Origin: Thermoleophilaceae bacterium
GTDB taxonomy: Bacteria > Actinomycetota > Thermoleophilia > Solirubrobacterales > Thermoleophilaceae
Reading direction: 5' to 3'
DNA: 64,000 bases
Assembly (NCBI GenBank): GCA_036378175.1
Contig: DASUWY010000048.1
Location: 1 to 64,000 of the forward strand
Numbering within the stretch: the stretch's first letter is position 1; every line of letters begins with the position of its first letter. The notes under the pieces are model-generated. The model did not search any database. It saw only the letters and a program-made list of their open reading frames with translations, and was not told the origin of the DNA. This document shows positions 35,893-54,984 of the stretch, in pieces. The translations under genes were made by a program, and so were the position numbers.

Positions 35893-36264
35893 ATGAATAC
35901 GGCAGTGTTCCTCGACCGCGACGGCACGCTCAACAAGCTCGCGCCGCAGGGCGAATGCGTTCGCTCACCCGGCCAGGTCGAGCTCCTGCGCGGCGCCGCG
36001 CACGCGGTGGGAATGCTGCGGCGGGCGGCCGGGGAGCTCGGCATCGATCTCGGCGAGTCGTGGATGATCGGCGACGCCGCCACGGACATCGACGCCGGAG
36101 CGGCCGCGGGCTGCCGGACGCTGCGGGTGCAGCCGGTGGACTTCTCGCTGCTCGACGCCGCTCACGCGATCATCGCGGGCAACGCTCAACCGGGCTGGAC
36201 GGCCGCGCCCTCCTGCACGAGCGTCCTCAGCCCGGTGAAGAAGATCATCAGCATCGTCCCGTAG
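35893..36264 (+). pseudogene. GmhB/HisB-N-type HAD phosphatase with internal deletion
   Basis: Frame of 123 codons. The start is normal: AVFLDRDGTLNK (motif I nucleophile). After LLRGAAHAV the sequence jumps straight to GMLRRAAGELGIDLGESWMIGDAATDIDAGAAAGCRT, the C-terminal motif IV. Family members carry about 80-90 residues between these, including motif II, the zinc-binding Cys/His loop and the motif III Lys, all missing here. The frame is preserved, so this is an in-frame deletion. The last 26 codons run into the convergent TetR gene, suggesting loss of the original stop. A working phosphatase is unlikely. Confidence 0.75.
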
Positions 36265-36839
36265 AGCTCGTCGTCCACGGCCTCCGGCTCGAGCATCTTC
36301 TCGAGCGCCATGCCGTTGACCATCGCGAAGGTCATCAGCGCGACCCTGTCGAGCTCCTCCTGAGGGGGAGTGTTCATGTCCGGGTCGCGCTCGACACGGC
36401 GGCGATACAGATCGGCGATCCGCTGCCGGAGGGCCCGGTAGCGCTGCACGAGCTCCTTTCGGAACGCCTCGTTGCGGCCCGCGTGCGCGGCGAACTCGAA
36501 GAACAGCCGCTCCCACTCGGGATCCGCGGCAATGGCGCGACTGAAGTCGGTGCCCGCCTGGCGCGCCTGCTCTTCCGGCGTCTCGTCGCCGGCGGTGGCA
36601 CGCTCGAGCTCCTCGAGCCGCGCGGCAAAGCGCTCGTCGAGCATCGCGAGGAAGAGCTCCTCCTTGCTCGCGAAGTTCGCGTAGAAGGCTCCCTTGGTGA
36701 AGCCCGCCTCCTCCGCCACCTCATCAATAGACGCGTGGTGAAGACCGCGGCGCGAGAACACCGTGCCGGCCGCCTCGATCAGGCGCGCCCGTGTATGCGC
36801 CTGCTTCTCCTTGCGGCTGAGCCGCGCGGCCTTGGCCAT
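36186..36839 (-). CDS. TetR-family transcriptional regulator
   Basis: 217 aa. N-terminal HTH: RARLIEAAGTVFSRRG, ASIDEVAEEAGFTKGAFYANFASKEELFLAML. The C-terminal ligand domain resembles the TetR_C groups that follow a P450. It starts at 36839, sharing one base with the P450 stop, so both are co-transcribed (P450 first). The 32-bp palindrome upstream of the P450 gene is its probable operator, giving autorepression. Ligand unknown, perhaps the P450 substrate. Confidence 0.92.
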   Translation of the reverse strand: MAKAARLSRKEKQAHTRARLIEAAGTVFSRRGLHHASIDEVAEEAGFTKGAFYANFASKEELFLAMLDERFAARLEELERATAGDETPEEQARQAGTDFSRAIAADPEWERLFFEFAAHAGRNEAFRKELVQRYRALRQRIADLYRRRVERDPDMNTPPQEELDRVALMTFAMVNGMALEKMLEPEAVDDELYGTMLMIFFTGLRTLVQEGAAVQPG

Positions 36840-38182
36840 CAGGCCGCCACCGCCTCTTCGTCACGCGGCCGCGATTGCACGCGACGACTGGCGATCACCT
36901 CCGCACCGCGGTTGGGCGTGAGCGTAATGGCGCGCCGCACCACGCGCTCGGGCTCGGTCCGTGCCGCCCGGAGGTCCACCGAGCGCGCGACCGCGGACAG
37001 CACGGTCTTCATCTCCACAACCGCGAAGCTCGCGCCGATGCAGCGCCGGATGCCGCCGCCGAACGGGATCCACGTGTAGGTGCCCGCCGGCTGCTCGAGG
37101 AAGCGCTCCGGCCGGAACGCCGTGGGATCCGGGTCGTACACGCTCGCGTGCCGGTGCATCAGGTAGATGCACGGTGCCACCTTCACGCCCGCCGGCAGCG
37201 TGTAGCCGCCGATCTCCACGGGCTCGGTGAGGCGCCGAACCACGATCGGGATGACCGGCCGCAACCGCAGCGTCTCCTTCGCCACCGCGTCCACGTACTC
37301 GTCCTCACCGGCGTCGGCCTCCTCGCGCAGGCGCTCGAGCTTGTCCGGGTGGCGCACGAGGCGCTCGATGCCCCAGGCGAGGGCGGTGGCGGTGGTCTCG
37401 TGACCGGCCACGAGCAGCGTCATCAGCTCGTCGCGGAGCTCCTCGTCGCTCATCGGCGAGCCGTCCTCGTGCTGCGCCTGGAGAAGCAGCGACATGATGT
37501 CGTCACGGGAGCCGAGGTTCTCATCGCCTCGGCGGGCGCGGATCTCGTCGTAGAGCAGCCCGTCGACGTCCGTGAACTTGTCCCGGAACAGCCGCATCTG
37601 GGAAACGCGCTCGGGCCCGAGCAGCGCGAGCGCGGCCATCTGCGTGGGCGCTGTGGCCCAGTCGAGCGAGCCGCGAATGGCCTCGCGAAGGCGGTCGAGC
37701 CGCGCGCCCTCCTCCATGCCGAACACCGCGCGCATGATCACCTCGAGGGTGACCGCCTGCATCCGCGGCCACAGCTCGAGCACCTCGCCCTGCGGCCAGC
37801 GCTCGATCTCGTGCTCCGCCACCTCGCGCATCACGTCCACATAGCGCTGCATGCGCTCGCCGTGGAACGGAGGGAGCAGCAGCTTGCGCTGCGCCAGATG
37901 CGGCTGCTCGTCGAGGAGCAGCACGGAGTTGTCCCCCAGCACCGGCCGGAGGATGGCGTTCGCCTCGCCAGCGTGGAAGACCTTCGGGTCGCCCGTGAAC
38001 ACCTGCCGGACGTGCTCCGGGTTCGCGAGCATCACCCAGGTGCCCTCCTGAGCGATGCGGACGCTGAACACGTCGCCGTGGCGCTTGTGGCAGCGCTCGA
38101 GGAAGGGGCCGGTTCGCGTGATCCACGCGAGTGTCTGAACCGGACGCGGCATGCGCGGTCCGGGAGGAAGCTGCTGAGTCAC
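36839..38182 (-). CDS. Cytochrome P450
   Basis: 447 aa heme-thiolate monooxygenase. I-helix oxygen-binding GHETTATALAWGIERL (about 250), K-helix ExxR in KETLRLRPVIP, and the heme loop FGGGIRRCIGASFA with the axial Cys381. The N-terminus has no membrane anchor, so it is soluble and needs separate redox partners, none of which is in the window. Sequence style resembles CYP families of bacterial CYP51/CYP102-like unspecific class I enzymes; a substrate cannot be named. Coupled to the TetR regulator gene downstream. Confidence 0.95.
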   Translation of the reverse strand: MTQQLPPGPRMPRPVQTLAWITRTGPFLERCHKRHGDVFSVRIAQEGTWVMLANPEHVRQVFTGDPKVFHAGEANAILRPVLGDNSVLLLDEQPHLAQRKLLLPPFHGERMQRYVDVMREVAEHEIERWPQGEVLELWPRMQAVTLEVIMRAVFGMEEGARLDRLREAIRGSLDWATAPTQMAALALLGPERVSQMRLFRDKFTDVDGLLYDEIRARRGDENLGSRDDIMSLLLQAQHEDGSPMSDEELRDELMTLLVAGHETTATALAWGIERLVRHPDKLERLREEADAGEDEYVDAVAKETLRLRPVIPIVVRRLTEPVEIGGYTLPAGVKVAPCIYLMHRHASVYDPDPTAFRPERFLEQPAGTYTWIPFGGGIRRCIGASFAVVEMKTVLSAVARSVDLRAARTEPERVVRRAITLTPNRGAEVIASRRVQSRPRDEEAVAA

Positions 38183-43537: not shown

Positions 43538-46021
43538 CTACGTGCCTAGGTGCTCGGCCTTCAGCCAGTCGATCGTCGCGTCGAGGCCGGCCGCGTAGTC
43601 CACCCGCGGCTCCCATCCGAGCAGGTCGCGCGCCTTGCGGTTGCTGAAGTCCTGGTTCCTTCCGAGCATCTGGACGGCCTGCCGCGACAGCAGCGGCGGC
43701 GTGGTCAAGCGGGTGGTCCGGTGCAGCACCCGGTAGCCGTGCTCGAGCGAGAAGCCGATGCCGTTCGCCATCCAATACGGCATGTTCCAGCGCTTCGGCG
43801 CGCAGCCGAGACCTTCGGCCAGGCCGTCAATGAATTGCCTCCAGGTCACGTCGAGACCGTCGCTCGCGTTGAACGCGTTCCCGGGTGCCGCCTCATGTCG
43901 CGCGGCGAGGAGAGCAGCGTCCACCACGTTCTCGACGTACACGAGCCCGGCCACGGCCTGGCCGCCGTCCACGAGCAGCATGTGCCCGGCGCGAATCGCG
44001 CGCGCGATCTCGCCCACCACGTCGGTGGAGTGAGGCCCGTACACCGTCGCCGGCCGGAGGATGACCGTCTCGAGCCCGTGCGCTTCGCCAACGCGGCGGA
44101 CCTCTTCCTCCGCCGCGCGCTTGGTCTGCGCGTACCAGTTGCGAAAGCCATTGCCGGCGTAGCTCTCGTCAACCCCGGCGACTCCCGGATAGCCATAGAC
44201 GTCCGTGGTGCTGAAGTGAATGAAGCGCTCCACCGCCGCGTCCACCGACGCCTGCAGCAGGTTCCGCGTGCCGCCCACGTTCACGCCGGCGATCTCCTTC
44301 GGTGTCCCCCAGTCGGACACCATCCCCGCGCAGTGGAAGACGTGGCGGCAGCCTTCGGCGGCCCGTGCCATCGAGCGCGCGCTCGTGAGGTCGCCAACGG
44401 CGATCTCGACGTTCAGCCGATCGAGCAGCGAGGTGTCGCTGCTCGAGCGCGCGAGGCAGCGCACCTGGTACCCCTCCTCCACGAGGCGCCGCGCGAGATG
44501 ACCGCCGATGAAGCCCGTTGCGCCGGTGACGAGGCACACGTGGTCCCGCGAGGGGTCGATGCGCGTTCCGCGGAACTTCACGTCATCGCTTCCCGTCGGG
44601 GGCCCGTCCACCGGGCGACGCCGGATCGTCGCCGTGGCGATGTCCCGCACCACCCCCCAGTTCTTGCTCGCCGCGCCGTGCACGTCTGCCAGCACGGCAT
44701 CGAGCGCGTCGAGGAAGCTGGACGCCTCCGGCGCCGAAAGCGTTAGCGGCGGCAGCAGCTTGATCACGTCGTTCTTGCCCGCCGCCATCGTGATCACGCC
44801 ATGGTCTCGATGCAGGGGAATCACCACGAGTTGGGGGAAGAGCCCGCCGCTCGCCATGTGGAAGAGGCGCCAGTTGAGCCGGCCCACGGCGGAGCTCGGT
44901 GCGCCGAGCTCGATCCCGATCATCAGCCCGCGGCCGCGAACCTCCTTGACCATCTCGTAGCGCTTGGCCAGCTCGGAGATCCCGTCGCGCAGGACGGAGC
45001 CCATCTGGGCGCTCTGCTCGACGAGGTGATCGCGCTCGATGATGCGGAGCGTGGCCAGACCCGCGGCCATGGCGAGCCGGTTTCGCCCGTAAGTGGACTG
45101 GTGGACGTAGGAGCGCTCCAAGGTGCCGACGGCGCGCTGGAAGATGTCGCGGCGGGTGACCATGGCGGCCACCGGCATGTAGCCGCCGCTGAGCGCCTTC
45201 CCGACGAGCACGAAGTCTGGCTGGAGACCCCAATGCTCGAGCGCGAACCACTTGCCCGTGCGTCCGAGGCCAGTCTGAACCTCGTCGACGATGAAGAGGG
45301 TGCCGTAGCGCCGGCACAGCTCCTGCGCCGCCTCGAGATAGCCGGCGGGCGGGAGCGTGACCATGCGGCCCTGGATCGGCTCGACGATGAAGGCTGCCAC
45401 GTCCTTCTTCCGGAGCTGCGCCTCGAGCCGCTCGAGGTCGCCAAAGGGAACGCGCTCGCAGCCGGGCAGGAGCGGGCCGAAGCCCTCCTTGAAGAAGTCG
45501 TCCCCCACCAGCGACAGCGGGCCGAGCGTGATGCCGTGGAAGCTGCTGTCGCACGAGATCAGCCGCGGCCTGCCGGTGGCGGCGCGCGCGAACTTCATCG
45601 CCGAGTCCACCACCTCGGCGCCGGTGCTGCCGAAGAACACGGCGTCGAGCCCGGCGGGCAGGCGCTGCGACAGCGCCTCGGCCAGCATGCCGGCGAGCGC
45701 CGAGTAATGGATCTGCACGCCGTCGACGAAGTCCGCGGCGAGCGTGGCCGTCAGGGCGGTCCGAACATCGGGATGGTTGTGCCCGAGGCTTGCGAAGCCC
45801 TCGCCGGTGTGAAAGTCGAGGTACGCGCGACCGTCGCGGTCATAGAGGTACGAGCCGCGTGCCGACACGTACTCCTTGTCGAACCCGATGATCCGCAGCA
45901 CGTCGACGAGCGATGCGTCGAGATGGCGGCTGGCCAGCTCGAGCGTCTCGTCCGAGCGCGCCACGGCATCCGCCACGATCCCGAGCGAATCCGTGGGCCA
46001 GGATTCGGCGTCCAAACGCAC
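43538..46021 (-). CDS. Fusion: class-III PLP aminotransferase + NAD-dependent epimerase/3beta-HSD-like domain
   Basis: 827 aa in one uninterrupted frame. Residues of about 40-445 are a class-III aminotransferase (ornithine/acetylornithine type): VFFGSTGAEVVDSAMKFARA, VDEVQTGLGRTGKW, and the PLP Lys in VLVGKALSGGYMP (Lys275). Residues of about 495-825 are an extended SDR: CLVTGATGFIGGHLARRL, HFSTTDVYGYP and YAQTK (catalytic Tyr and Lys). Enzymes of these types act in amino-sugar or secondary-metabolite routes, so a keto-to-amine step paired with redox or epimerisation is plausible. No other sugar or biosynthetic genes are adjacent. Confidence 0.88.
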   Translation of the reverse strand: MRLDAESWPTDSLGIVADAVARSDETLELASRHLDASLVDVLRIIGFDKEYVSARGSYLYDRDGRAYLDFHTGEGFASLGHNHPDVRTALTATLAADFVDGVQIHYSALAGMLAEALSQRLPAGLDAVFFGSTGAEVVDSAMKFARAATGRPRLISCDSSFHGITLGPLSLVGDDFFKEGFGPLLPGCERVPFGDLERLEAQLRKKDVAAFIVEPIQGRMVTLPPAGYLEAAQELCRRYGTLFIVDEVQTGLGRTGKWFALEHWGLQPDFVLVGKALSGGYMPVAAMVTRRDIFQRAVGTLERSYVHQSTYGRNRLAMAAGLATLRIIERDHLVEQSAQMGSVLRDGISELAKRYEMVKEVRGRGLMIGIELGAPSSAVGRLNWRLFHMASGGLFPQLVVIPLHRDHGVITMAAGKNDVIKLLPPLTLSAPEASSFLDALDAVLADVHGAASKNWGVVRDIATATIRRRPVDGPPTGSDDVKFRGTRIDPSRDHVCLVTGATGFIGGHLARRLVEEGYQVRCLARSSSDTSLLDRLNVEIAVGDLTSARSMARAAEGCRHVFHCAGMVSDWGTPKEIAGVNVGGTRNLLQASVDAAVERFIHFSTTDVYGYPGVAGVDESYAGNGFRNWYAQTKRAAEEEVRRVGEAHGLETVILRPATVYGPHSTDVVGEIARAIRAGHMLLVDGGQAVAGLVYVENVVDAALLAARHEAAPGNAFNASDGLDVTWRQFIDGLAEGLGCAPKRWNMPYWMANGIGFSLEHGYRVLHRTTRLTTPPLLSRQAVQMLGRNQDFSNRKARDLLGWEPRVDYAAGLDATIDWLKAEHLGT

Positions 46022-46071
46022 GCGTGCACAATACGCGAGCCGCCTGCGGGGGCGCGCGACGCGGGGTGGGA

Positions 46072-46145
46072 TGGGCGGTGCCCGGCTCGAACGGGCGACC
46101 TCCTGCTTGTAAGGCAGGCGCTCTGACCAACTGAGCTAACCGCCC
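46072..46145 (-). tRNA. tRNA-Val (anticodon TAC)
   Basis: Minus-strand cloverleaf. Acceptor GGGCGGT pairs with ACCGCCC, discriminator A. The D-arm is GCTCAGTTGGTCAGAGC, anticodon loop CTTACAA, T-loop TTCGAGC. No encoded CCA. Lies between the pot operon and the fusion gene. Confidence 0.96.
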
Positions 46146-46172
46146 AGGCGCGGTCGAGTCTAGCCGCGTGTC

Positions 46173-47024
46173 TCAGGCGTTCGCGCCTGCGGCCTCGGCC
46201 GCCGGCGCCAGGCGCCGCGCCGCGGTGGAGCGCAGCACGCCGGTGTCGCGCGTGAGCCGTTGCGCGAGCGTGACCGGCACGATCGTCACCGCGATCACGA
46301 TCAGCACGACAACATTCACCTGCGGCAGCTGCTGGCCGAGCCGGATGTTGCCGAAGATCCACAGCGGCAGCGTGTTCTGGGCGCCGGCGGTGAACGTGGT
46401 GACAACCACCTCGTCGAACGAGAGTGCGAACGCCAAGAGCCCGCCGGCCACGAGCGCCGTGGCGATCACCGGCAGCGTGACGAAGCGGAACGTCTGCCAG
46501 CCGTCGGCGCCGAGGTCCATGGACGCCTCGATCAGCGAGGTCTGCGTCCGGCGCAGCCGCGCGAGCACGTTGTTGTAGACGGTGACGATGCAGAAGGTGG
46601 CGTGGCCGATGATGATCGTGAGGAGCGAGAAGTTCGTGCCTCCCCACGTGAAGAACGAGTTGAGCGCCATGCCGGTGATGATTCCGGGGAGCGCGATCGG
46701 CAGCACCAGCACGAGCGACACCGCCTCACGGCCGAAGAAGCGGAAGCGGTGCACCGCGAATGCCGCCATCGAGCCGAGCAGCAGCGCGATGCCGGTGGCC
46801 ACGAGCGCGGCGCGGATGGACAGCCAGAACGCATCCTTCATGTCCTGGTTGTGAAACGTGGAGGAGAACCACTTGGTGGACAGCCCGTCGAGCGGCCAGC
46901 TCTGCACGTTCGACGGGTTGAACGCGTAGAGGATGATGATCGCGATCGGGAAGAAGAGGAACAGCATGATCAGCGCCGCCCACACGGCGTGGGCGATGCG
47001 GCTGGTGCGGCTCGCCCCGATCAC
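46173..47024 (-). CDS. potC: Polyamine-type ABC transporter permease PotC
   Basis: 283 aa with six membrane helices. PotC-like features are LFFPIAIIILYAFNPS near the N-terminus, GMALNSFFTWGG, and the EAA loop LIEASMDLGADGWQTFRFVTLPVIATAL. Inner-membrane half of a spermidine/putrescine-type importer. Last gene of potA-potD-potB-potC; it overlaps potB by 4 bp. tRNA-Val lies just beyond its 3' end. Substrate class is from family resemblance; related transporters also move other cations. Confidence 0.92.
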   Translation of the reverse strand: MIGASRTSRIAHAVWAALIMLFLFFPIAIIILYAFNPSNVQSWPLDGLSTKWFSSTFHNQDMKDAFWLSIRAALVATGIALLLGSMAAFAVHRFRFFGREAVSLVLVLPIALPGIITGMALNSFFTWGGTNFSLLTIIIGHATFCIVTVYNNVLARLRRTQTSLIEASMDLGADGWQTFRFVTLPVIATALVAGGLLAFALSFDEVVVTTFTAGAQNTLPLWIFGNIRLGQQLPQVNVVVLIVIAVTIVPVTLAQRLTRDTGVLRSTAARRLAPAAEAAGANA

Positions 47025-47938
47025 AGCGCCTCGAACGCTCCCAGGCGCCGCGCGCCCATCAGATAGATCCCCATGACCACCACCGGAACCACCGCGAACG
47101 CGGCGGCGAACGGCACGTTGTTCGACACACCCACGCTGCGATAGACGACGTTGCCGATGAAGTCCGACCCCGCGCCGCCAACGAGGGTGGGCGTGATGAA
47201 GTCACCAAGCGTGAGGGAGAAGGTGAAGATCGAGCCGGCCACGATGCCCGGCAGCACCTGCGGCCAGAGCACTCGCCGGAACGTGTGCCAGCCGCGGGCG
47301 CCGAGGTCGGCAGACGCCTCGAGATACGAGTCGGGCACGCGCTCGATCGCCGCCCACACCGGCAGGATCATGAACGGCAGCCAGATGTAGCTGAACACGA
47401 TCCACATCGCCGTGTTCGAGTAGGCCACGTTCACCGACCCGAGCCCGATGTGGTCGAGGAACCAGTTGAGGATGCCGTCCTTGGCGAGGATCAGCCGCCA
47501 GGCGTACACGCGCACGAGGTAGGAGGTCCACAGCGGGATCAGCACCGCCACGAACAGAGCGGTCTGCAGCCGCCGCGGCGCGAGGCGTGCCGCATAGAAG
47601 GCAAACGGGAACGCGAGTATTGCGTCCGTGACCGTCACCGCCGCCGCGATCCCGATCGTGCGCAGGGCGATCGTCCGATACGTCGGTTCCGTGAAGAGGG
47701 TCTTGAAGTTGTCGAGCGTCCAGGTGTGGACTAGCTTGCCCGAGAACTCGTCCACGCTCCAGAGCGAGGACAGGAACAGGATCACGAGGGCCGCCAGGTA
47801 GATGAGCACGAACCACGCGCCGGGCGCCGACAGCAGCATCACGGCCCGCAACCACGGCCGGCGGGACAGAGCCGCCGACGCGCGGATGCGGGCCGAGCTG
47901 TGAGCGGGCGGACCCGAGGCGAAGCTGGATGCCTCCAC
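47021..47938 (-). CDS. potB: Polyamine-type ABC transporter permease PotB
   Basis: 305 aa, six membrane helices. N-terminal cytoplasmic stretch, then SAPGAWFVLIYLAALVILFLSSLW. The segment VRVYAWRLILAKDGILNWFLDHIGL is characteristic of PotB/PotH, and the EAA loop reads LEASADLGARGWHTFRRVLWPQVLPGI. Partners with PotC. Lies 8 bp after potD, overlaps potC by 4 bp. Confidence 0.92.
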   Translation of the reverse strand: MEASSFASGPPAHSSARIRASAALSRRPWLRAVMLLSAPGAWFVLIYLAALVILFLSSLWSVDEFSGKLVHTWTLDNFKTLFTEPTYRTIALRTIGIAAAVTVTDAILAFPFAFYAARLAPRRLQTALFVAVLIPLWTSYLVRVYAWRLILAKDGILNWFLDHIGLGSVNVAYSNTAMWIVFSYIWLPFMILPVWAAIERVPDSYLEASADLGARGWHTFRRVLWPQVLPGIVAGSIFTFSLTLGDFITPTLVGGAGSDFIGNVVYRSVGVSNNVPFAAAFAVVPVVVMGIYLMGARRLGAFEAL

Positions 47939-47946
47939 CGCGGTCC

Positions 47947-49128
47947 CTACCCCTTGATCTCAGTCCACTTCTGTTGCCACTCGGTGTAGTCCGTGCAGTC
48001 GTTCTTGCCGTTTCCGCACTCCTTCACCGGCGTCTTCCAGAACTTGATGCTGTTGAAGTACGCGGCCGGCGCGTTGGCGTGGTACTGCGCGCACGCGCCC
48101 TTCTGGATCTTGTCCATGAACGGGCAGGCCTTGGTGTTGGCCGGCGTCTCGCCGAACGAGATCGCCTGCTGCGCCTGCACCTGGGGCGTGGACACCCATT
48201 TCATCCACAGGTAGGCGCAGTTGGGGTGCTTGGCGTGCGCCGAGAGCATCCACGTGTCGGCCCAGCCGGTGGCGCCCTCCTTGGGGATCAGATCCTTCAC
48301 GGGTGCCTTGGCTCCCTGCAGGGTGATGGTCTGGTAGGGCCACGATGCGCCGATCACGGCGTCGCCGTTCTTGAACAGGTCGATCTCGTCGGAGGCGAGC
48401 GCCCAGTACTTCTTGATCAGCGGCCGCTGCTGCTTGAGCAGGTTCACCGCGGCGTTCAGCTGCGGCTGGGTGAGCTCGTAGGGGTCCGTGATCCCCAGAT
48501 TGGGCTGCGTCTTGGACAGGTAGAGGGCCGCATCCGCGATCTGGATCGGGTTGTCCGGCACCGTGATCTCGCCCTTGTACTTCGGGCTGTAGATCTCCGA
48601 CCAGCTGGTGGGCGCCGGCGTGACCTTCTGCGTGTTGTACAGAAGCGTGTTCGGTCCCCACTGGAGTGACACGCCGTAGTGCTTGCCATCCACCGTGTTG
48701 TGCGGCGGCGACTGGAGCTGCGGGATGAAGTCCTTCCAGCCCGGGATCAGGTTGACGTTGACGGGCTGAACGTCGCCACCCCGGATCAGGCGAAGGCTCG
48801 CGTCGCCGGACGCCGAGACCATGTCGTACTGGCTGCCGCCGCCCTGACGCATCAACGTGACCATCTCGTCCGAGGAGCCGGCGTACTTGGCGTGCACCTG
48901 ACAGCCGGTCTGCTGCTGGAACGGCTTGACCCACTGCGGCTGCGTGTAACCCTCCCACGCGACGAGATTGAGCTGTCCCTCGCCCGGCCCGATCTTCGTG
49001 GGAAGACTGCTCGACGAGCCCCCGGACGAGCTGCTGCTCGACCCCCCGCAGGCGGCCACGACAACGGCCAGTGCCGTGGCGAGGAGCACGCCAGCCGCCA
49101 CGCGGCGCGAGCTTCGATCGAATCTCAT
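47947..49128 (-). CDS. potD: Polyamine-type ABC transporter substrate-binding lipoprotein PotD
   Basis: 393 aa from ATG 49128. Signal peptide with lipobox VVVAACGG followed by a Ser/Gly linker. PotD/F family blocks: LNLVAWEGYTQPQW, QQTGCQVHAKYAGSSDEMVTLMRQG, YDMVSASGDASLRL and SPKYKGEITVPDNP. Four extra Cys near the C-terminus (TKACPF, KGACAQ, KECGNGKNDC) suggest two disulfides, unusual in the family. Its ATG overlaps the potA stop. Ligand could be a polyamine or related cation. Confidence 0.92.
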   Translation of the reverse strand: MRFDRSSRRVAAGVLLATALAVVVAACGGSSSSSSGGSSSSLPTKIGPGEGQLNLVAWEGYTQPQWVKPFQQQTGCQVHAKYAGSSDEMVTLMRQGGGSQYDMVSASGDASLRLIRGGDVQPVNVNLIPGWKDFIPQLQSPPHNTVDGKHYGVSLQWGPNTLLYNTQKVTPAPTSWSEIYSPKYKGEITVPDNPIQIADAALYLSKTQPNLGITDPYELTQPQLNAAVNLLKQQRPLIKKYWALASDEIDLFKNGDAVIGASWPYQTITLQGAKAPVKDLIPKEGATGWADTWMLSAHAKHPNCAYLWMKWVSTPQVQAQQAISFGETPANTKACPFMDKIQKGACAQYHANAPAAYFNSIKFWKTPVKECGNGKNDCTDYTEWQQKWTEIKG

Positions 49129-50282
49129 GAGTCCATTTCCTCCTCGTTTGTGCCTTCGGTTGGACGAAGCGGCGAAGCATCCTCCGGACGCCACACAAGC
49201 CAGACGCGGCTGCCGCGCTCGTCAAGCACGGCCTCAGCGGATGTCTCGAGGTTCTGCCTGAGCACGACGAGCGTCTCGCCGTGGTCGAGCTCGACCACGT
49301 AGCGCGTGACCGAGCCGAGATACACCACCTCGCGCACGACGCCCGGTTCCCCGTAGGGGTCCGCCGGCGCCGATTCGAGCATGCGGATCTTCTCGGGCCG
49401 GATCGTTGAGCGCTGCCCGTCCTGCTCGATGATGTTCGAGGTGCCCACGAAGCCGGCCACGAACTCGTTCGCCGGTCGCTCGTAGATCTCGCCCGGCGTG
49501 CCCACCTGCTCGATCCGGCCCTCTGAGAAGACGGCGATGCGGTCGCTCATCGTCAGCGCCTCCTCCTGGTCGTGGGTCACGTAGACGAAGGTGATCCGCT
49601 CGGACAGCTCGCGCTGGATGGCCTTCAGCTCCATCTGCATCTCCTGGCGCAGCTTCAGGTCGAGTGCGCCGAGCGGCTCGTCGAGCAGGAGCACTCGGGG
49701 CCGGTTCACGATCGCGCGCGCGAGCGCCACCCGCTGCCGCTGACCGCCCGAGAGTTGGATCGGCCGGCGCTTTCCGACGTCCGGCAGCCGCACCATGGCG
49801 AGCGCCTCGGCCACGCGCTGCTCGCGCTCGCGCTTCGGCACGCCCTGCACGCGCAGTCCGTAGCCCACGTTCTCCCCCACGCTCATGTGCGGGAACAGCG
49901 CGTAGTCCTGGAAGACGGTGTTGACTGGCCGCTGGTAGGGCGGCTGGCGCGACACGTCCTCGCCGTGCAGCTCAATCGCGCCCGAGTCCGGCGGCTCGAA
50001 TCCGGCGATCAGGCGCAGCGTGGTGGTCTTGCCCGAACCGGACGGACCAAGCATGGTGAAGAACTCGCCCTGGGCGATCTCGAGCGACAGGCGCTCGATC
50101 GCCACCACGTCGCCGTAGGTCTTGCGCAGCCCGATCAGCCGGACGGCGGGCGCGCCGGATCCTTTGCCTGCCGACGTCGCGGCCGAGTCCTGGACGTCGT
50201 CGGTGGTCGTACTTCCTCGATGGAGCACGCGCGGCGAGTCTATGGGCCGATTGACCCGCGCACAATGCCCGCCCTGGAGCAT
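49125..50282 (-). CDS. potA: Polyamine-type ABC transporter ATPase PotA
   Basis: 385 aa. ABC domain: Walker A MLGPSGSGKTTTLRLIAGFE, Q-loop VFQDYALFPHMSVGENVGYG, signature LSGGQRQRVALARAIVNRP, Walker B LLLDEPLGALD, H-loop VTHDQEEALTMSDRIAV. C-terminal TOBE-like regulatory domain from about 290. The start is uncertain: ATG 50282 (used) or GTG 50228; the ABC domain begins only at about residue 47, so the shorter form is plausible. First gene of the pot operon. Confidence 0.93.
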   Translation of the reverse strand: MLQGGHCARVNRPIDSPRVLHRGSTTTDDVQDSAATSAGKGSGAPAVRLIGLRKTYGDVVAIERLSLEIAQGEFFTMLGPSGSGKTTTLRLIAGFEPPDSGAIELHGEDVSRQPPYQRPVNTVFQDYALFPHMSVGENVGYGLRVQGVPKREREQRVAEALAMVRLPDVGKRRPIQLSGGQRQRVALARAIVNRPRVLLLDEPLGALDLKLRQEMQMELKAIQRELSERITFVYVTHDQEEALTMSDRIAVFSEGRIEQVGTPGEIYERPANEFVAGFVGTSNIIEQDGQRSTIRPEKIRMLESAPADPYGEPGVVREVVYLGSVTRYVVELDHGETLVVLRQNLETSAEAVLDERGSRVWLVWRPEDASPLRPTEGTNEEEMDS

Positions 50283-51436: not shown

Positions 51437-52166
51437 GACGATCTGCGCGCGACCGCCGTCGATCGGAAAGCGCCTTGCGGGCGCGGCGCAGGCGCGCCGC
51501 GGCGGCGTGCCCGTTGATCCGCCCGGCCATCTGGAACGGCCGGTCGCCCAGCAGAAGCCGGAACGCCAGCCGCAGCGTGCTGGCGTCTGCCTTGTCCGGA
51601 GAGCCGGATTCGAACGGCGGCTGCGGGTCGTATTCGATGATCAGCTGAAGCGATTCAGCGAGCTCGCGCCCATGAACGCGCTCGGTCAAAGCAAGCGCCA
51701 TGTCGATGCCCGCGGACACGCCCGCCCCGCTGATGTGGTTCCCCTGCCACACGACGCGATCGCCCACCACCTCGACGCCCATCGCCCGCAGGTTGTCCCG
51801 GAATCCCCAGTGGGTGGTGGTCTTCTTGCCTTCGAGCAGACCGGCCGCGGCGTAGAGACCCGCGCCGGTGCAGACGGAAGCCGTCCACTTACAACCGGGC
51901 GCGGCAGAGCGCAGCCAGTCGATCAGCACGTGATCGCTTAACACAGGCACCGGATTACCGCTCCCTGGCACAACGATGAGATCGGGGTGCGGCAGCGTGC
52001 TGGGTGTGTCCGTCGGGACGACCGTCAAGCCGACGTCGCAACGCACGGGATCCAGCGATCGCGACACGAAGTGAACTTCCGCGCCCGGCCAGCGGCTGAT
52101 CACCTCGTATGGCCCGACCAGGTCGAGCGCGGTGAAGTCCGGGTAGAGGACGTACGCGATCTTCAT
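51393..52166 (-). CDS. DJ-1/PfpI family protein (isonitrile-hydratase/GlxA-like)
   Basis: 257 aa from ATG 52166. Opens KIAYVLYPDFTALDLVGPYEV, with the nucleophile Cys in ASVCTGAGLYAAAGLLEGKK (about 100) followed by TTTHW, the layout of isonitrile hydratase and of the N-terminal domain of GlxA regulators. No AraC HTH follows; the tail is basic. The ATG overlaps the stop of the multicopper oxidase gene, so it is co-translated with it. The last 44 bp overlap the convergent small membrane gene. Activity unknown. Confidence 0.85.
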   Translation of the reverse strand: MKIAYVLYPDFTALDLVGPYEVISRWPGAEVHFVSRSLDPVRCDVGLTVVPTDTPSTLPHPDLIVVPGSGNPVPVLSDHVLIDWLRSAAPGCKWTASVCTGAGLYAAAGLLEGKKTTTHWGFRDNLRAMGVEVVGDRVVWQGNHISGAGVSAGIDMALALTERVHGRELAESLQLIIEYDPQPPFESGSPDKADASTLRLAFRLLLGDRPFQMAGRINGHAAAARLRRARKALSDRRRSRADRPIYGEPAARPPASH

Positions 52167-53908
52167 TGCTCGCCCTCGGCCGGGCTGACGTCGAAGCTGA
52201 ACATCATTCCGCTCTCGTGGTGCTCGGCGATGTGGCAGTGCGCCATCCAGTGACCGGGGTTGGTGACGTCCAGCAGGATGTCCACCGTCTCGCTGGTCCG
52301 CACCAGCACGGTGTCCTTCCAAACAAGGCTTGGCTCGGGCACCCCATCTCGGGAAAGGACGACAAAGCGCCCCGCGCCGTGGATGTGGAACGGGTGGTGC
52401 ATCGGATGGTCACCGGCCATCTCGTTGAGCAGCCGGATCTTCACCCGGTCACCTACGCGGAAGCGCCAGTCGATCGCCGCGTTCTCCGCATCGGTGGCGC
52501 GATCGATCAGCTTCCAACGCATGTTCGCCGGCGTGGTCAGCCGGTTGACCTCGACCATGTCGTCCTCCCACTCGATGCCGCCGGCCGCCGCGTGGTCGTG
52601 GCCGTGGTCGTGGTGCTCGTGGTCGTGGTGATCGTGGTGGTCGTGGCCGTGCGCTCCGCCGGCCTCGGCCACAAGCTGAGCCGGCAGGAGCTTCATACCG
52701 CACTGCGGGCAATGACTCGGCTCCTCACTCACCACCTCGGGGTGCATCGGACAGATGTAGGTGGTCTTGGGCGCCTCGGCCGCAATCAGCTTCATCCCGC
52801 ACTGCGGGCAGTGGCCGGGCTGGTCGCTCGCCACCTCCGGGTGCATCGGGCACACGTAGACGACCGGGCCCTCCCCGTCGGGCGCGGGCATGTCCATCTC
52901 GGCTATGAACGCCAGCGTCTTGTCGGGCTCTGCCTCCAGGTACGGCGCGACCCGCTCGCGTTCGGCAACCATGTCCGCGTTTGTGCGCAGGTCTTCGAAT
53001 TCCGCCTTGAGCGATGGCGCGGCCCGTTCGTCGCGGACGGTGATCGTCGCCAGCACATAGACCCGCTCCGGCGTGCGGTGCACGAGCGCGAATTCCCCAG
53101 GCGCATCGAACAGGACGTCGACCACCACGCGCTCCGAAGGAGCCAGGACGACGTCGTCGACGAACTGCTCGTGCTCAACGTGGCCGCTGTCGCCGCCCAC
53201 GAGCTTCATCCGAGCACCGGGGAGCGCCACCTTGAAGACGCGTGTATTGGCGGTGTTGGTCAGGTAGAGCCGCACGACCTCGCCCGAAAGCGCCGTCAAA
53301 GACAGTTCGCTTTCGCCGGCGGCGAGCAGCACGTCGCCGAAGCGGCCCATGGCTGCATGGGTCGTCTCGGCGCGGCTGAACGGAGCGACCTTGCCCTCCT
53401 CGAGCAGGATGTCGTCGAGAGTCAGAGCAAGCTCGCGATGGACCGCCGGCCAGTAGTCAGGGTCCGCCGGCTCGACCAGCACGTTGCCGTACAGCCCCAT
53501 CTCCTGGCCGTAGTCCTCGCGGATGTGCGGGTGATACCAGTACACCCCGGCGTCGGGAAATTGGACGCGGGCCGTGAAGCGGCCGCCCACCGGAATCGGC
53601 GCCTGCGTCTCGTGGGTCCCGTCGTACCGGTTGTCGAGCCGCAGCCCGTGCCAGTGGACGGTGCCTTCCATGTCGCCCTCGTTCTCCACGCGGACGAGGA
53701 CCTCCGAGCCCTCCTTCACCCTCAGGGTCGGTCCGGGGATCGAGCCGTTGTACGCGAGCATCCTCACGGTGGTGTCGCCGAGCCGCTTGGCAACCGGCGC
53801 GATCCGCAGCTCGAATTCCTCACCGTGGGACAGGTCGACTATCTCGGTGGGGCGAGCGTTGGCAAGACCGGCGGGGTCCGTGGGGAAGTGGTCGTGTGTG
53901 GTGCTCAT
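52163..53908 (-). CDS. Multicopper oxidase with tandem heavy-metal-binding inserts and His-rich loop
   Basis: 581 aa from ATG 53908 (AGGAGAG upstream). Cupredoxin domains hold the copper ligands HWHG, WYHPH, HPMHHPFHIHG and MAHCHIAEHHESGMM (the T1 Cys-His-Met set). Between the second and last cupredoxin parts are two copies of a CPMHPEV...CPQCGMKL metal-binding domain (about 350-375 and 385-410), then a tract of alternating His and Asp/Gly (about 420-440). No signal peptide is seen. Likely a copper-dependent oxidase with its own metal-loading or sensing arms. Coupled by overlaps to a flavin monooxygenase upstream and DJ-1 downstream. Confidence 0.92.
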   Translation of the reverse strand: MSTTHDHFPTDPAGLANARPTEIVDLSHGEEFELRIAPVAKRLGDTTVRMLAYNGSIPGPTLRVKEGSEVLVRVENEGDMEGTVHWHGLRLDNRYDGTHETQAPIPVGGRFTARVQFPDAGVYWYHPHIREDYGQEMGLYGNVLVEPADPDYWPAVHRELALTLDDILLEEGKVAPFSRAETTHAAMGRFGDVLLAAGESELSLTALSGEVVRLYLTNTANTRVFKVALPGARMKLVGGDSGHVEHEQFVDDVVLAPSERVVVDVLFDAPGEFALVHRTPERVYVLATITVRDERAAPSLKAEFEDLRTNADMVAERERVAPYLEAEPDKTLAFIAEMDMPAPDGEGPVVYVCPMHPEVASDQPGHCPQCGMKLIAAEAPKTTYICPMHPEVVSEEPSHCPQCGMKLLPAQLVAEAGGAHGHDHHDHHDHEHHDHGHDHAAAGGIEWEDDMVEVNRLTTPANMRWKLIDRATDAENAAIDWRFRVGDRVKIRLLNEMAGDHPMHHPFHIHGAGRFVVLSRDGVPEPSLVWKDTVLVRTSETVDILLDVTNPGHWMAHCHIAEHHESGMMFSFDVSPAEGEQ

Positions 53909-54984
53909 GCTGCTCTCCTGAGTTCGAAGCTCGGGGTCGTGCGAGTGGTGTGCTGTGCGATGTACTCGGCGTCGTCCTTGACCCAGCCGAGAAGCGCTGA
54001 GCCGCGGGTGTGCTGCCAGGACATGCCGAGGAAGTAGAGGCCGGGCGACGCAGTCACGCCGCGTTGGTGCAAGACGCGTCCCGCGCCGTCGAACACGGGC
54101 GCACCGACCCATGAGTAGTCCGTGGTGTAGCCGGTGGCCCAGATCACGGCGTGCACGTCGACCGCGCTGCCATCGCTGAAGGTCACACGCGAACCCTCGG
54201 CGCCGACGGCGCGCGGGCGCAGCTCGACGCGGGACCGCCGCGTCACCGTTCGCGGACTCGATCCGATCAGCGTGTCCCGACCTGCGAGCCGGCGTCCGAT
54301 CCGCGTCGCCGCCGACTTGCGCATCAGGCCGGTCACCTCGAGGTACCAGAAGAGGTCCCGGCCGAAGATCCGCTGCGGCAACGGCGTCTGGCGCGACCCC
54401 ACCGCAAGATGGACCTCGCGCGAGTCCGAAAGCTCCTCAGCGATCTGAAAGCCCGTGTTGCCCCCACCCACGACCAGCACGGTGCCCTCCGGCAGGCCGG
54501 CTGGCTTTCGGTAATGGTCGCTGTGCATCTGGACGACCCCGGAATCGAGGCCGTTGGCGAAGGCGGGTATCCGCGGCGTCTGAAACGGGCCCGTCGCAAT
54601 CACGACCTGATCCGCTTCGATCCGCGCACCGTCGAGCTCGACGGCGAAGCCTTCCGCGCCGCGACTCACCGAGCGCACGTTGCTGCCCAGCTCAACCGGC
54701 AGGTCGAACCGCTCGGCATACTGCTGCAGATACGACACGACCTCGTCACGACTCGGGTAGCCGTCGGGGTCGCCTGGAAATGGCAGACCAGGCAGGCTGT
54801 CGTAGCGGCGCGATGTGAACAGGGTCAACGAGTCCTAGCGGTTACGCCAAGCCGAACCGATCGCATCACCACGATCGAGGATTACGAACCGGCGGCCCTG
54901 CCGTGCGAGGTGGTAGCCAAGCGCGAGGCCGGCCTGCCCTGCTCCGACTACTACGACGTCATAGCGAGCGCCGTTCCCGATCAT
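53905..54984 (-). pseudogene. FAD-dependent monooxygenase interrupted by an in-frame TAG
   Basis: Read from ATG 54984 (GGAGG site upstream) the protein starts YDVVVVGAGQAGLALGYHLA (FAD Rossmann) and reaches GSAWRNR, then TAG (54835-54837), then resumes in the same frame with DSLTLFTSRRYDSLPGLPF. The NAD(P) motif VLVVGGGNTGFQIAEELSDS and ATGY (IWATGYTTDY) follow to 53905. The interrupted position is normally Trp (RNRWDSL), a one-base TGG-to-TAG change. Otherwise it is a normal CzcO/Baeyer-Villiger-like flavin monooxygenase of about 359 aa. A sequencing error or readthrough cannot be excluded. Confidence 0.85.

What the first reader, a model, noticed from the sequence alone, without database searches (positions are those of the whole stretch)
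43538..46021. Aminotransferase-epimerase fusion standing alone
One 827-aa frame joins a class-III PLP aminotransferase (Lys275) to a complete extended SDR/epimerase (YxxxK kept). Both active sites appear intact, so the fusion likely channels a keto/amino intermediate. No partner biosynthetic genes are adjacent, leaving the pathway open; possible roles include an amino-polyol, amino-sugar or sphingoid-like product.
Basis: partly seen in the sequence, partly recalled or inferred. Interest (0 to 1): 0.55.

Follow-up and report, generated by a model that had tools for sequence, protein, structure and literature searches.

The report
Aminotransferase–reductase fusion of hopanoid makers
A soil actinobacterium carries one long protein that joins an amino-group-transferring enzyme to an oxidising/reducing enzyme; relatives show it is genuine, is found almost only in bacteria that make hopanoids (bacterial membrane lipids resembling cholesterol), and probably remodels the sugar-derived tail of those lipids.

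Summary
The fusion is real: one 827-aa frame on the minus strand (46021..43538), class-III aminotransferase (Lys275) then an extended SDR (Tyr630/Lys634), both active sites conserved. It is not an assembly artefact: 12 of 29 related loci are fused (one on a complete isolate chromosome) and 17 of 29 are adjacent genes, most overlapping by 4 nt; a single origin of the fused state is rejected (p-AU 3.6e-5). The neighbourhood holds no partner, but the genome does: the aminotransferase is sister to HpnO (hopanoid aminotransferase) and PigE. In 232 genomes of the order the family occurs in 29, 26 of which have squalene-hopene cyclase (54 of 232 do); all 12 high-quality carriers have it, as do three non-actinobacterial carriers. 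It usually accompanies HpnO (25 of 29), so it is an extra step, not a replacement. The SDR is not HpnA (164 bits, cut-off 368) and carries an NADP-type Arg. Best reading: a bifunctional hopanoid side-chain tailoring enzyme working on shared carbonyl intermediates of the C35 polyol tail. The hopanoid link rests on co-occurrence and homology; substrate and direction are inferred.

The parts
43538..46021 (-). CDS, 827 aa, aminotransferase-SDR fusion (GTG start at 46021; stop 43540-43538)
   Evidence: homologues align from residue 1-11
44690..45871 (-). class-III aminotransferase domain (residues 51-444), HpnO/PigE-like
   Evidence: Pfam PF00202; tree; nearest fold PigE 4ppm, 40% identity
45197..45199 (-). 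codon of Lys275, PLP Schiff-base lysine
   Evidence: 29 of 29 conserved
44579..44623 (-). inter-domain linker (residues 467-481), disordered in the model; in most split relatives the gene junction lies near here
   Evidence: pLDDT < 50; junctions
43547..44539 (-). extended SDR domain (about residues 495-825)
   Evidence: Pfam Epimerase/3Beta_HSD; NCBIfam best HpnA 164 bits and OleD 161 bits, both far under cut-off
44447..44449 (-). codon of Arg525 after the second beta strand, NADP(H)-type residue
   Evidence: 30 of 30 in the family; the NADP reading is recalled SDR knowledge
44120..44134 (-). codons of Tyr630 to Lys634, SDR catalytic YxxxK
   Evidence: 30 of 30 conserved

Best explanation
A bifunctional tailoring enzyme of the hopanoid (bacteriohopanepolyol) side chain. 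SHOWN: a genuine fusion of an HpnO/PigE-type PLP aminotransferase and an extended SDR with an NADP-type Arg; a gene pair older than the fusion, kept together across Solirubrobacterales, two Verrucomicrobia and one Bradymonadales genome, often as a 4-nt-overlapping operon, and fused or split more than once; found almost only in genomes with squalene-hopene cyclase, usually besides a separate HpnO. INFERRED: the substrate is the C35 polyol side chain made by HpnH/HpnG (ribosylhopane, an aldehyde when open, or bacteriohopanetetrol). The SDR interconverts a side-chain hydroxyl and carbonyl with NADP(H); the aminotransferase interconverts the same or a neighbouring carbonyl and an amine. The two share a carbonyl intermediate, which would explain coupling and fusion, and give a second amino- or hydroxy-hopanoid beside HpnO's aminotriol. 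Least certain: direction. Two versions: (a) the SDR makes a carbonyl from an alcohol and the aminotransferase aminates it (OH to NH2, NADPH formed); (b) the SDR reduces and the aminotransferase aminates the ribosylhopane aldehyde, a two-way branch point giving bacteriohopanetetrol or aminotriol. I lean slightly to (a), because HpnO already covers direct amination in most carriers.
For: Aminotransferase sister to [Streptomyces HpnO-position gene + Solirubrobacterales HpnO + PigE], family branch 99/97. The Streptomyces relative (47%) is the last gene of hpnC-D-E-...-shc-...-hpnH-ispG-dxs. HpnO-type genes lie beside shc in G066 and G090 and beside hpnH in G015. 101 relatives: aminotransferase hits E<=1e-100 in 13 genomes; shc and hpnH over cut-off in the same 12 of those 13 and in no others. 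Whole held order, 232 genomes: family 29, shc 54, overlap 26; 12 of 12 high-quality carriers have shc against 14 of 100 other high-quality genomes; all 10 carrier genera lie among the 15 shc genera of 54, hypergeometric 1.3e-7. 26 of 29 genomes behind L010-L038 have shc, including all three outside Actinomycetota. Own genome has hpnC, hpnD, hpnE, HpnG-LytB, shc and hpnH on contig C51. The Bradymonadales genome has shc, hpnH and only this pair as HpnO-type aminotransferase. Junctions, repeated fusion, active sites.
Against: No physical linkage to hopanoid genes in the flanks of the 29 loci or the window; in one genome, G223, it lies about 16 kb from shc on one contig. 3 of 29 carriers of the order lack shc (G196, G198, G237; 76, 86 and 63% complete). 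Only 26 of 54 shc genomes have the family, so it is not core. Co-occurrence can reflect shared descent or soil habitat; the Fisher tests do not correct for kinship. The L034 genome (G125) gave no hpnH match. The class-III aminotransferase superfamily is broad, and homology does not fix the substrate. The SDR also resembles OleD and 3beta-HSD, so other large hydrophobic substrates are possible. An NADP-type residue fits reduction better than the oxidation of version (a).
Confidence: 0.57

Rival explanations
1. It acts on another amino-lipid or amino-sugar that hopanoid producers also happen to make (a sphingoid-like or keto-acid-derived lipid), and co-occurs with hopanoids only through lineage or habitat.
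For: The SDR scores almost equally with OleD (161 bits, 2-alkyl-3-oxoalkanoate reductase) and HpnA (164 bits); the Bradymonadales SDR prefers OleD (136 against 111 bits); no linkage to hopanoid genes; tests not corrected for kinship.
Against: The aminotransferase half is nearest to HpnO and PigE; the three carriers outside Actinomycetota all have shc; the genus-level test is strong.
Confidence: 0.18
2. It is simply a second HpnO: the aminotransferase half makes 35-aminobacteriohopanetriol and the SDR half is an aldehyde reductase that makes bacteriohopanetetrol or protects the pathway from aldehyde; no new product. (This is version (b) of the best explanation taken alone; its weight overlaps with it.)
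For: In the Bradymonadales genome it is the only HpnO-type aminotransferase found, with shc and hpnH present; the ribosylhopane-to-bacteriohopanetetrol enzyme is unestablished (passages of PMC12583986); NADP-type Arg525; the nearest solved SDR is 3wj7, which I recall as the NADPH-dependent reductase Gox2253 (only the title of that paper was seen, in reference lists).
Against: HpnO is present besides it in 25 of 29 carriers of the order and in both Verrucomicrobia; the two aminotransferase clades are separate, with near-fixed differences at 8 positions.
Confidence: 0.25
3. It is a polyamine (putrescine-type) catabolic enzyme served by the potABCD-like transporter operon just upstream on the same strand.
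For: A PotA/YdcS-like ABC operon lies at 46173-50282 on the same strand; putrescine aminotransferase is among the nearest solved aminotransferases.
Against: A tRNA-Val gene separates them; the operon was not seen as shared among related loci; PigE scores far above putrescine aminotransferase (407 against 269 bits).
Confidence: 0.04
4. Assembly artefact or chance read-through joining two genes.
For: 17 of 29 related loci are two genes.
Against: 12 of 29 loci in independent assemblies are fused, one on a complete isolate chromosome (Conexibacter sp. S30A1); a single origin of the fused form is rejected.
Confidence: 0.01

Closest known systems
HpnO, hopanoid aminotransferase (ribosylhopane to 35-aminobacteriohopanetriol)
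   Same: Class-III aminotransferase, 44-50% identical, same N-terminal extension, same genomes, PLP residues kept
   Different: Separate clade; usually present in addition to HpnO; paired or fused with an NADP-type SDR; not in the hopanoid cluster in the 29 loci examined
PigE (prodigiosin MAP aminotransferase)
   Same: Best NCBIfam hit and best fold (4ppm, 40%)
   Different: 407 bits against a cut-off of 850; PigE's aminotransferase is the C-terminal half behind another N-terminal half, here it is N-terminal with an SDR behind
HpnA, hopanoid-associated sugar epimerase
   Same: Best NCBIfam hit of the SDR half; HpnA-like genes also follow HpnO-type aminotransferases in seven places in six genomes
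   Different: 164 bits against 367.65; different SDR clade; STDVY-type motif and R525, against an Asp at position 524 in the HpnO-linked HpnA seen
OleD / 3beta-HSD-type SDRs
   Same: OleD 161 bits; Pfam 3Beta_HSD 127 bits
   Different: Far below the OleD cut-off (580); ole genes were not sought
Azasugar three-gene cluster (aminotransferase, phosphatase, dehydrogenase)
   Same: A class-III aminotransferase coupled to a dehydrogenase acting on an amino-polyol (passages of PMC8382821)
   Different: The dehydrogenase there belongs to PF00107/PF08240 and comes with a phosphatase; here an SDR, and no phosphatase among the neighbours scanned

Membership tests
HpnO | Class-III aminotransferase with PLP lysine | tested here: met
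HpnO | Falls inside the HpnO clade | tested here: not met
   sister clade, 99/97; HpnO plus family without PigE is not rejected (p-AU 0.239), so near kinship stands
HpnO | Genome makes C35 hopanoids (shc and hpnH present) | tested here: met
   own genome C51; 26 of 29 order carriers have shc
HpnO | Encoded in the hopanoid cluster | tested here: not met
   not a strict criterion, hpnO is often outside the cluster (PMC12583986 passages)
HpnO | Converts ribosylhopane to aminobacteriohopanetriol | not testable with these tools
   needs assay or deletion
HpnA (TIGR03466) | Score over the curated cut-off 367.65 | tested here: not met
   164.4 bits; none of 101 genomes has a hit over the cut-off either
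HpnA (TIGR03466) | Same clade as the HpnO-linked HpnA | tested here: not met
   SDR tree, quick method, SH-aLRT 99
PigE (NF053554) | Score over the curated cut-off 850 | tested here: not met
   407 bits
Extended SDR superfamily | TGxxGxxG and YxxxK | tested here: met
Putrescine / acetylornithine / ornithine aminotransferases | Score over the NCBIfam cut-off | tested here: not met
   all 25 best hits shown are below their cut-offs
Azasugar three-gene cluster | Adjacent phosphatase and PF00107/PF08240 dehydrogenase | tested here: not met
   fusion partner is an SDR; none of the nine window neighbours scanned is of these families. One relative, L024, has a PF00107/PF08240 dehydrogenase just downstream

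The most novel reading that the evidence does not exclude
The fusion makes an undescribed class of nitrogen hopanoids by azasugar-like logic: the aminotransferase puts an amine on C35 of opened ribosylhopane, the SDR oxidises the C32 hydroxyl to a ketone, and the amine closes on it to a five-membered cyclic imine or pyrrolidine, i.e. a lipid-anchored iminosugar; or, more simply, an amine is placed at an internal carbon of the tail.
Probability: 0.1. Interest if true: 0.8.

Novelty: new variant of a known kind. Interest (0 to 1): 0.52.

Why it matters
Bacteriohopanepolyol side chains are used as biomarkers of past bacteria, yet the enzyme from ribosylhopane to bacteriohopanetetrol and the role of HpnA are stated as unknown, and amino-hopanoids occur in strains without hpnO (passages of PMC12583986). 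A dedicated aminotransferase-SDR pair nearly confined to hopanoid producers, including the cultured-name genome Conexibacter sp. S30A1, gives a concrete gene for these gaps. A fused enzyme also makes the link between the two activities directly testable with one purified protein.

Tried and rejected
Polyamine role from the upstream pot-like operon: rejected, not seen as conserved in relatives. Partner from local context: the shared neighbourhood of L019, L029, L033 and L037 is haem, cytochrome-assembly and molybdopterin housekeeping (families scanned on L019 only); neighbours of L024, L025, L034, L035 and L036 are mixed. SDR as a duplicate of the HpnO-linked HpnA: rejected by score, motif and tree. 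Assembly artefact: rejected. Nested origin of the aminotransferase inside HpnO: not supported, though a joint clade without PigE is not rejected. A counterexample for HpnO as a hopanoid marker: G046 (96% complete) has two HpnO-type aminotransferase plus HpnA-like pairs but no shc or hpnH over cut-off; it concerns HpnO, not the fusion family. Phylum sample: of 396 genomes only the window's own holds the fusion family, 23 others hold HpnO-type hits, so no test outside the order within Actinomycetota was possible. Paper searches for a described fusion listed none; I read only listings and passages. In one search my gene picker chose wrong-strand frames in some GC-rich loci (e.g. L010, L038), so the fused/split counts rest on tblastn frames. 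Rows dropped: from the aminotransferase tree 6 of 82 rows (partial or redundant: L043, L059, L063, L065, L086, L100) and one locus with a stop in the match (L061); from the SDR set matches shorter than 240 residues, with stops, or identical. The structure search listed only aminotransferase matches in its 50 rows, so it said nothing on the SDR; no second model was run.

Full report
OBSERVATION. The 827-aa frame is real and lies on the minus strand, 46021 to 43538, with a GTG start. Residues 51-444 are a class-III aminotransferase and 497-718 match the Epimerase family. Lys275, the TGATGFIG loop and Y630/K634 are present and conserved: Lys275 in 29 of 29 family aminotransferases, Y630 and K634 in 30 of 30 family SDR domains aligned. 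AlphaFold2 gives two folded domains (mean pLDDT 82.7) joined by a disordered linker at 467-481; pTM 0.59 leaves their relative placement open. The nearest fold is the PigE aminotransferase, 40% identical.

NOT AN ARTEFACT, AND NOT ALWAYS FUSED. One scan of genome contigs returned 58 loci; 29 of them (L010-L038) match both halves, the other 29 are other aminotransferases or SDRs. Of the 29, 12 are fused and 17 are adjacent genes. L018, counted as fused, ends early in the SDR, and L015 runs off its contig. In 10 of the 17 split loci a GTG start overlaps the TGA stop by four bases, in one more a TTG does; the others are at -1 (two), -8, -11, about -23 and +22. Fused and split forms are mixed on the tree: nine changes by parsimony, and holding the 13 fused rows as one clade is rejected (p-AU 3.57e-5; 34 rows: 13 fused, 16 split, 5 HpnO). 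One fused locus is on the complete chromosome of Conexibacter sp. S30A1. So the pair came first, probably as a translationally coupled operon, and fusion or fission happened repeatedly.

WHAT THE AMINOTRANSFERASE IS. Its best curated model is PigE (407 bits against a cut-off of 850). Its relatives on annotated plasmids are either PigE-like genes in prodiginine-like clusters, an unassigned Rhizobium gene, or, in Streptomyces fungicidicus, the last gene of a hopanoid cluster hpnC-hpnD-hpnE-...-shc-...-hpnH-ispG-dxs; the unannotated Streptomyces sp. BHT-5-2 locus also holds shc, hpnE and hpnH. A review says orf14 and orf18 of S. coelicolor are responsible for aminobacteriohopanetriol (passage of PMC10301674); that orf18 is this aminotransferase is my recollection. 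In the maximum-likelihood tree of 76 aminotransferases (6 of 82 rows left out) the fusion family is one clade (99/97), sister to PigE, Streptomyces HpnO and a Solirubrobacterales HpnO group. The own genome has both: the fusion and a 49%-identical HpnO-type gene on contig C25, followed by an overlapping HpnA-like SDR gene. Orthologues of that gene sit beside shc in G066 and G090 and beside hpnH in G015.

DISTRIBUTION. In 101 relatives, HpnO-type or family aminotransferases (E<=1e-100) are in 13 genomes; shc and hpnH over their cut-offs are in exactly 12, all among the 13; the exception is G046. In all 232 held genomes of the order the family (E<=1e-150) is in 29, shc in 54 (50 over cut-off), HpnO-type genes in 52; family and shc overlap in 26, family and HpnO in 25, HpnO and shc in 48. 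The three carriers without shc are 63-86% complete. Among genomes at least 90% complete and at most 5% contaminated, all 12 carriers have shc (one, G222, as a fragment below cut-off), against 14 of 100 non-carriers. Fisher tests (2e-16 and 2e-9) ignore kinship; at genus level all 10 carrier genera are among the 15 shc genera of 54 (1.3e-7). Of the 29 genomes behind L010-L038, 26 have shc, 24 over the cut-off, including two Verrucomicrobia and one Bradymonadales; many of these 29 are the same organisms as in the order set. hpnH is present in two of these three outsiders, missing in G125. Both Verrucomicrobia also have a separate HpnO-type gene, the Bradymonadales genome only the pair. In a spread of 396 genomes of the phylum no further carrier appeared.

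WHAT THE SDR IS. It scores 164 bits with HpnA (cut-off 367.65) and 161 with OleD (cut-off 580), and forms its own clade apart from HpnA-like SDRs (quick tree). All 30 family members have Arg525 after the second strand, as NADP-dependent extended SDRs do (recalled rule), whereas the HpnO-linked HpnA of G000, G001 and G099 have Asp one position earlier. Most other HpnA-like SDRs also have the Arg (20 of 22 aligned), so the Arg separates the family from the HpnO-linked HpnA only. The family's S-(T/S)-T-D-V-Y motif (D607, Y609 in 30 of 30) is absent from the 22 others aligned. The nearest solved relative is 3wj7.

HOW IT MAY WORK. The known route goes from hopene via HpnH to adenosylhopane, via HpnG to ribosylhopane, then via HpnO to aminobacteriohopanetriol or by an unestablished enzyme to bacteriohopanetetrol; the role of HpnA is unknown (passages of PMC12583986; HpnA suspected in that step, passages of PMC5462960). 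Open ribosylhopane is an aldehyde with three hydroxyls (recalled chemistry). An NADP-type SDR and an HpnO-type aminotransferase on one chain would share a carbonyl on this tail. Because HpnO is usually also present, I favour an additional product: alcohol to carbonyl by the SDR, carbonyl to amine by the aminotransferase. The reverse use of the SDR, reducing the aldehyde to bacteriohopanetetrol at a branch point, is nearly as likely. Substrate, direction and channelling are inferred; none is shown. The boldest reading left open, a cyclic-imine or pyrrolidine hopanoid, borrows the logic of bacterial azasugar clusters, where an aminotransferase and an aminopolyol dehydrogenase act in turn and the amine closes on the new carbonyl (passages of PMC8382821).

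NOVELTY. No listing or passage I saw describes this fusion (open-licence papers only). I file it as a new variant of the HpnO kind: it probably works like HpnO plus an SDR, but is not a member of the HpnO clade, nor of HpnA or PigE.

Noticed in passing
L112:14813-16459 (G066 hopanoid cluster); matches also in L113, L114, L115: A phosphorylase (HpnG position) fused to LytB/IspH inside the hopanoid cluster, PF01048 plus PF02401 in one 548-aa frame; another hopanoid-pathway fusion in this order.
   Followed up: partly
window 52163-54112 (-): Multicopper oxidase with two heavy-metal-binding (HMBD) motifs and a His-rich stretch between its cupredoxin domains.
   Followed up: no
window 46173-50282 (-): potABCD-like ABC operon with a YdcS/PotD-like binding protein, separated from the fusion by tRNA-Val 46069-46146.
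   Followed up: partly
G046 contigs C23 and C337 (L078, L086, L118): Two HpnO-type aminotransferase plus HpnA-like pairs in a 96%-complete genome without shc or hpnH over cut-off; unexplained.
   Followed up: partly
L009:7339-9719 (-), and G001, G046 (twice), G068, G099, G100: HpnO-type aminotransferase directly followed by an HpnA-like gene (NAD-type Asp where seen), a second, independent aminotransferase-SDR pairing in hopanoid producers.
   Followed up: partly
window 36839-38182 (-): Cytochrome P450 beside a TetR-like regulator at 36186-36839 (regulator named by eye from its sequence; P450).
   Followed up: no
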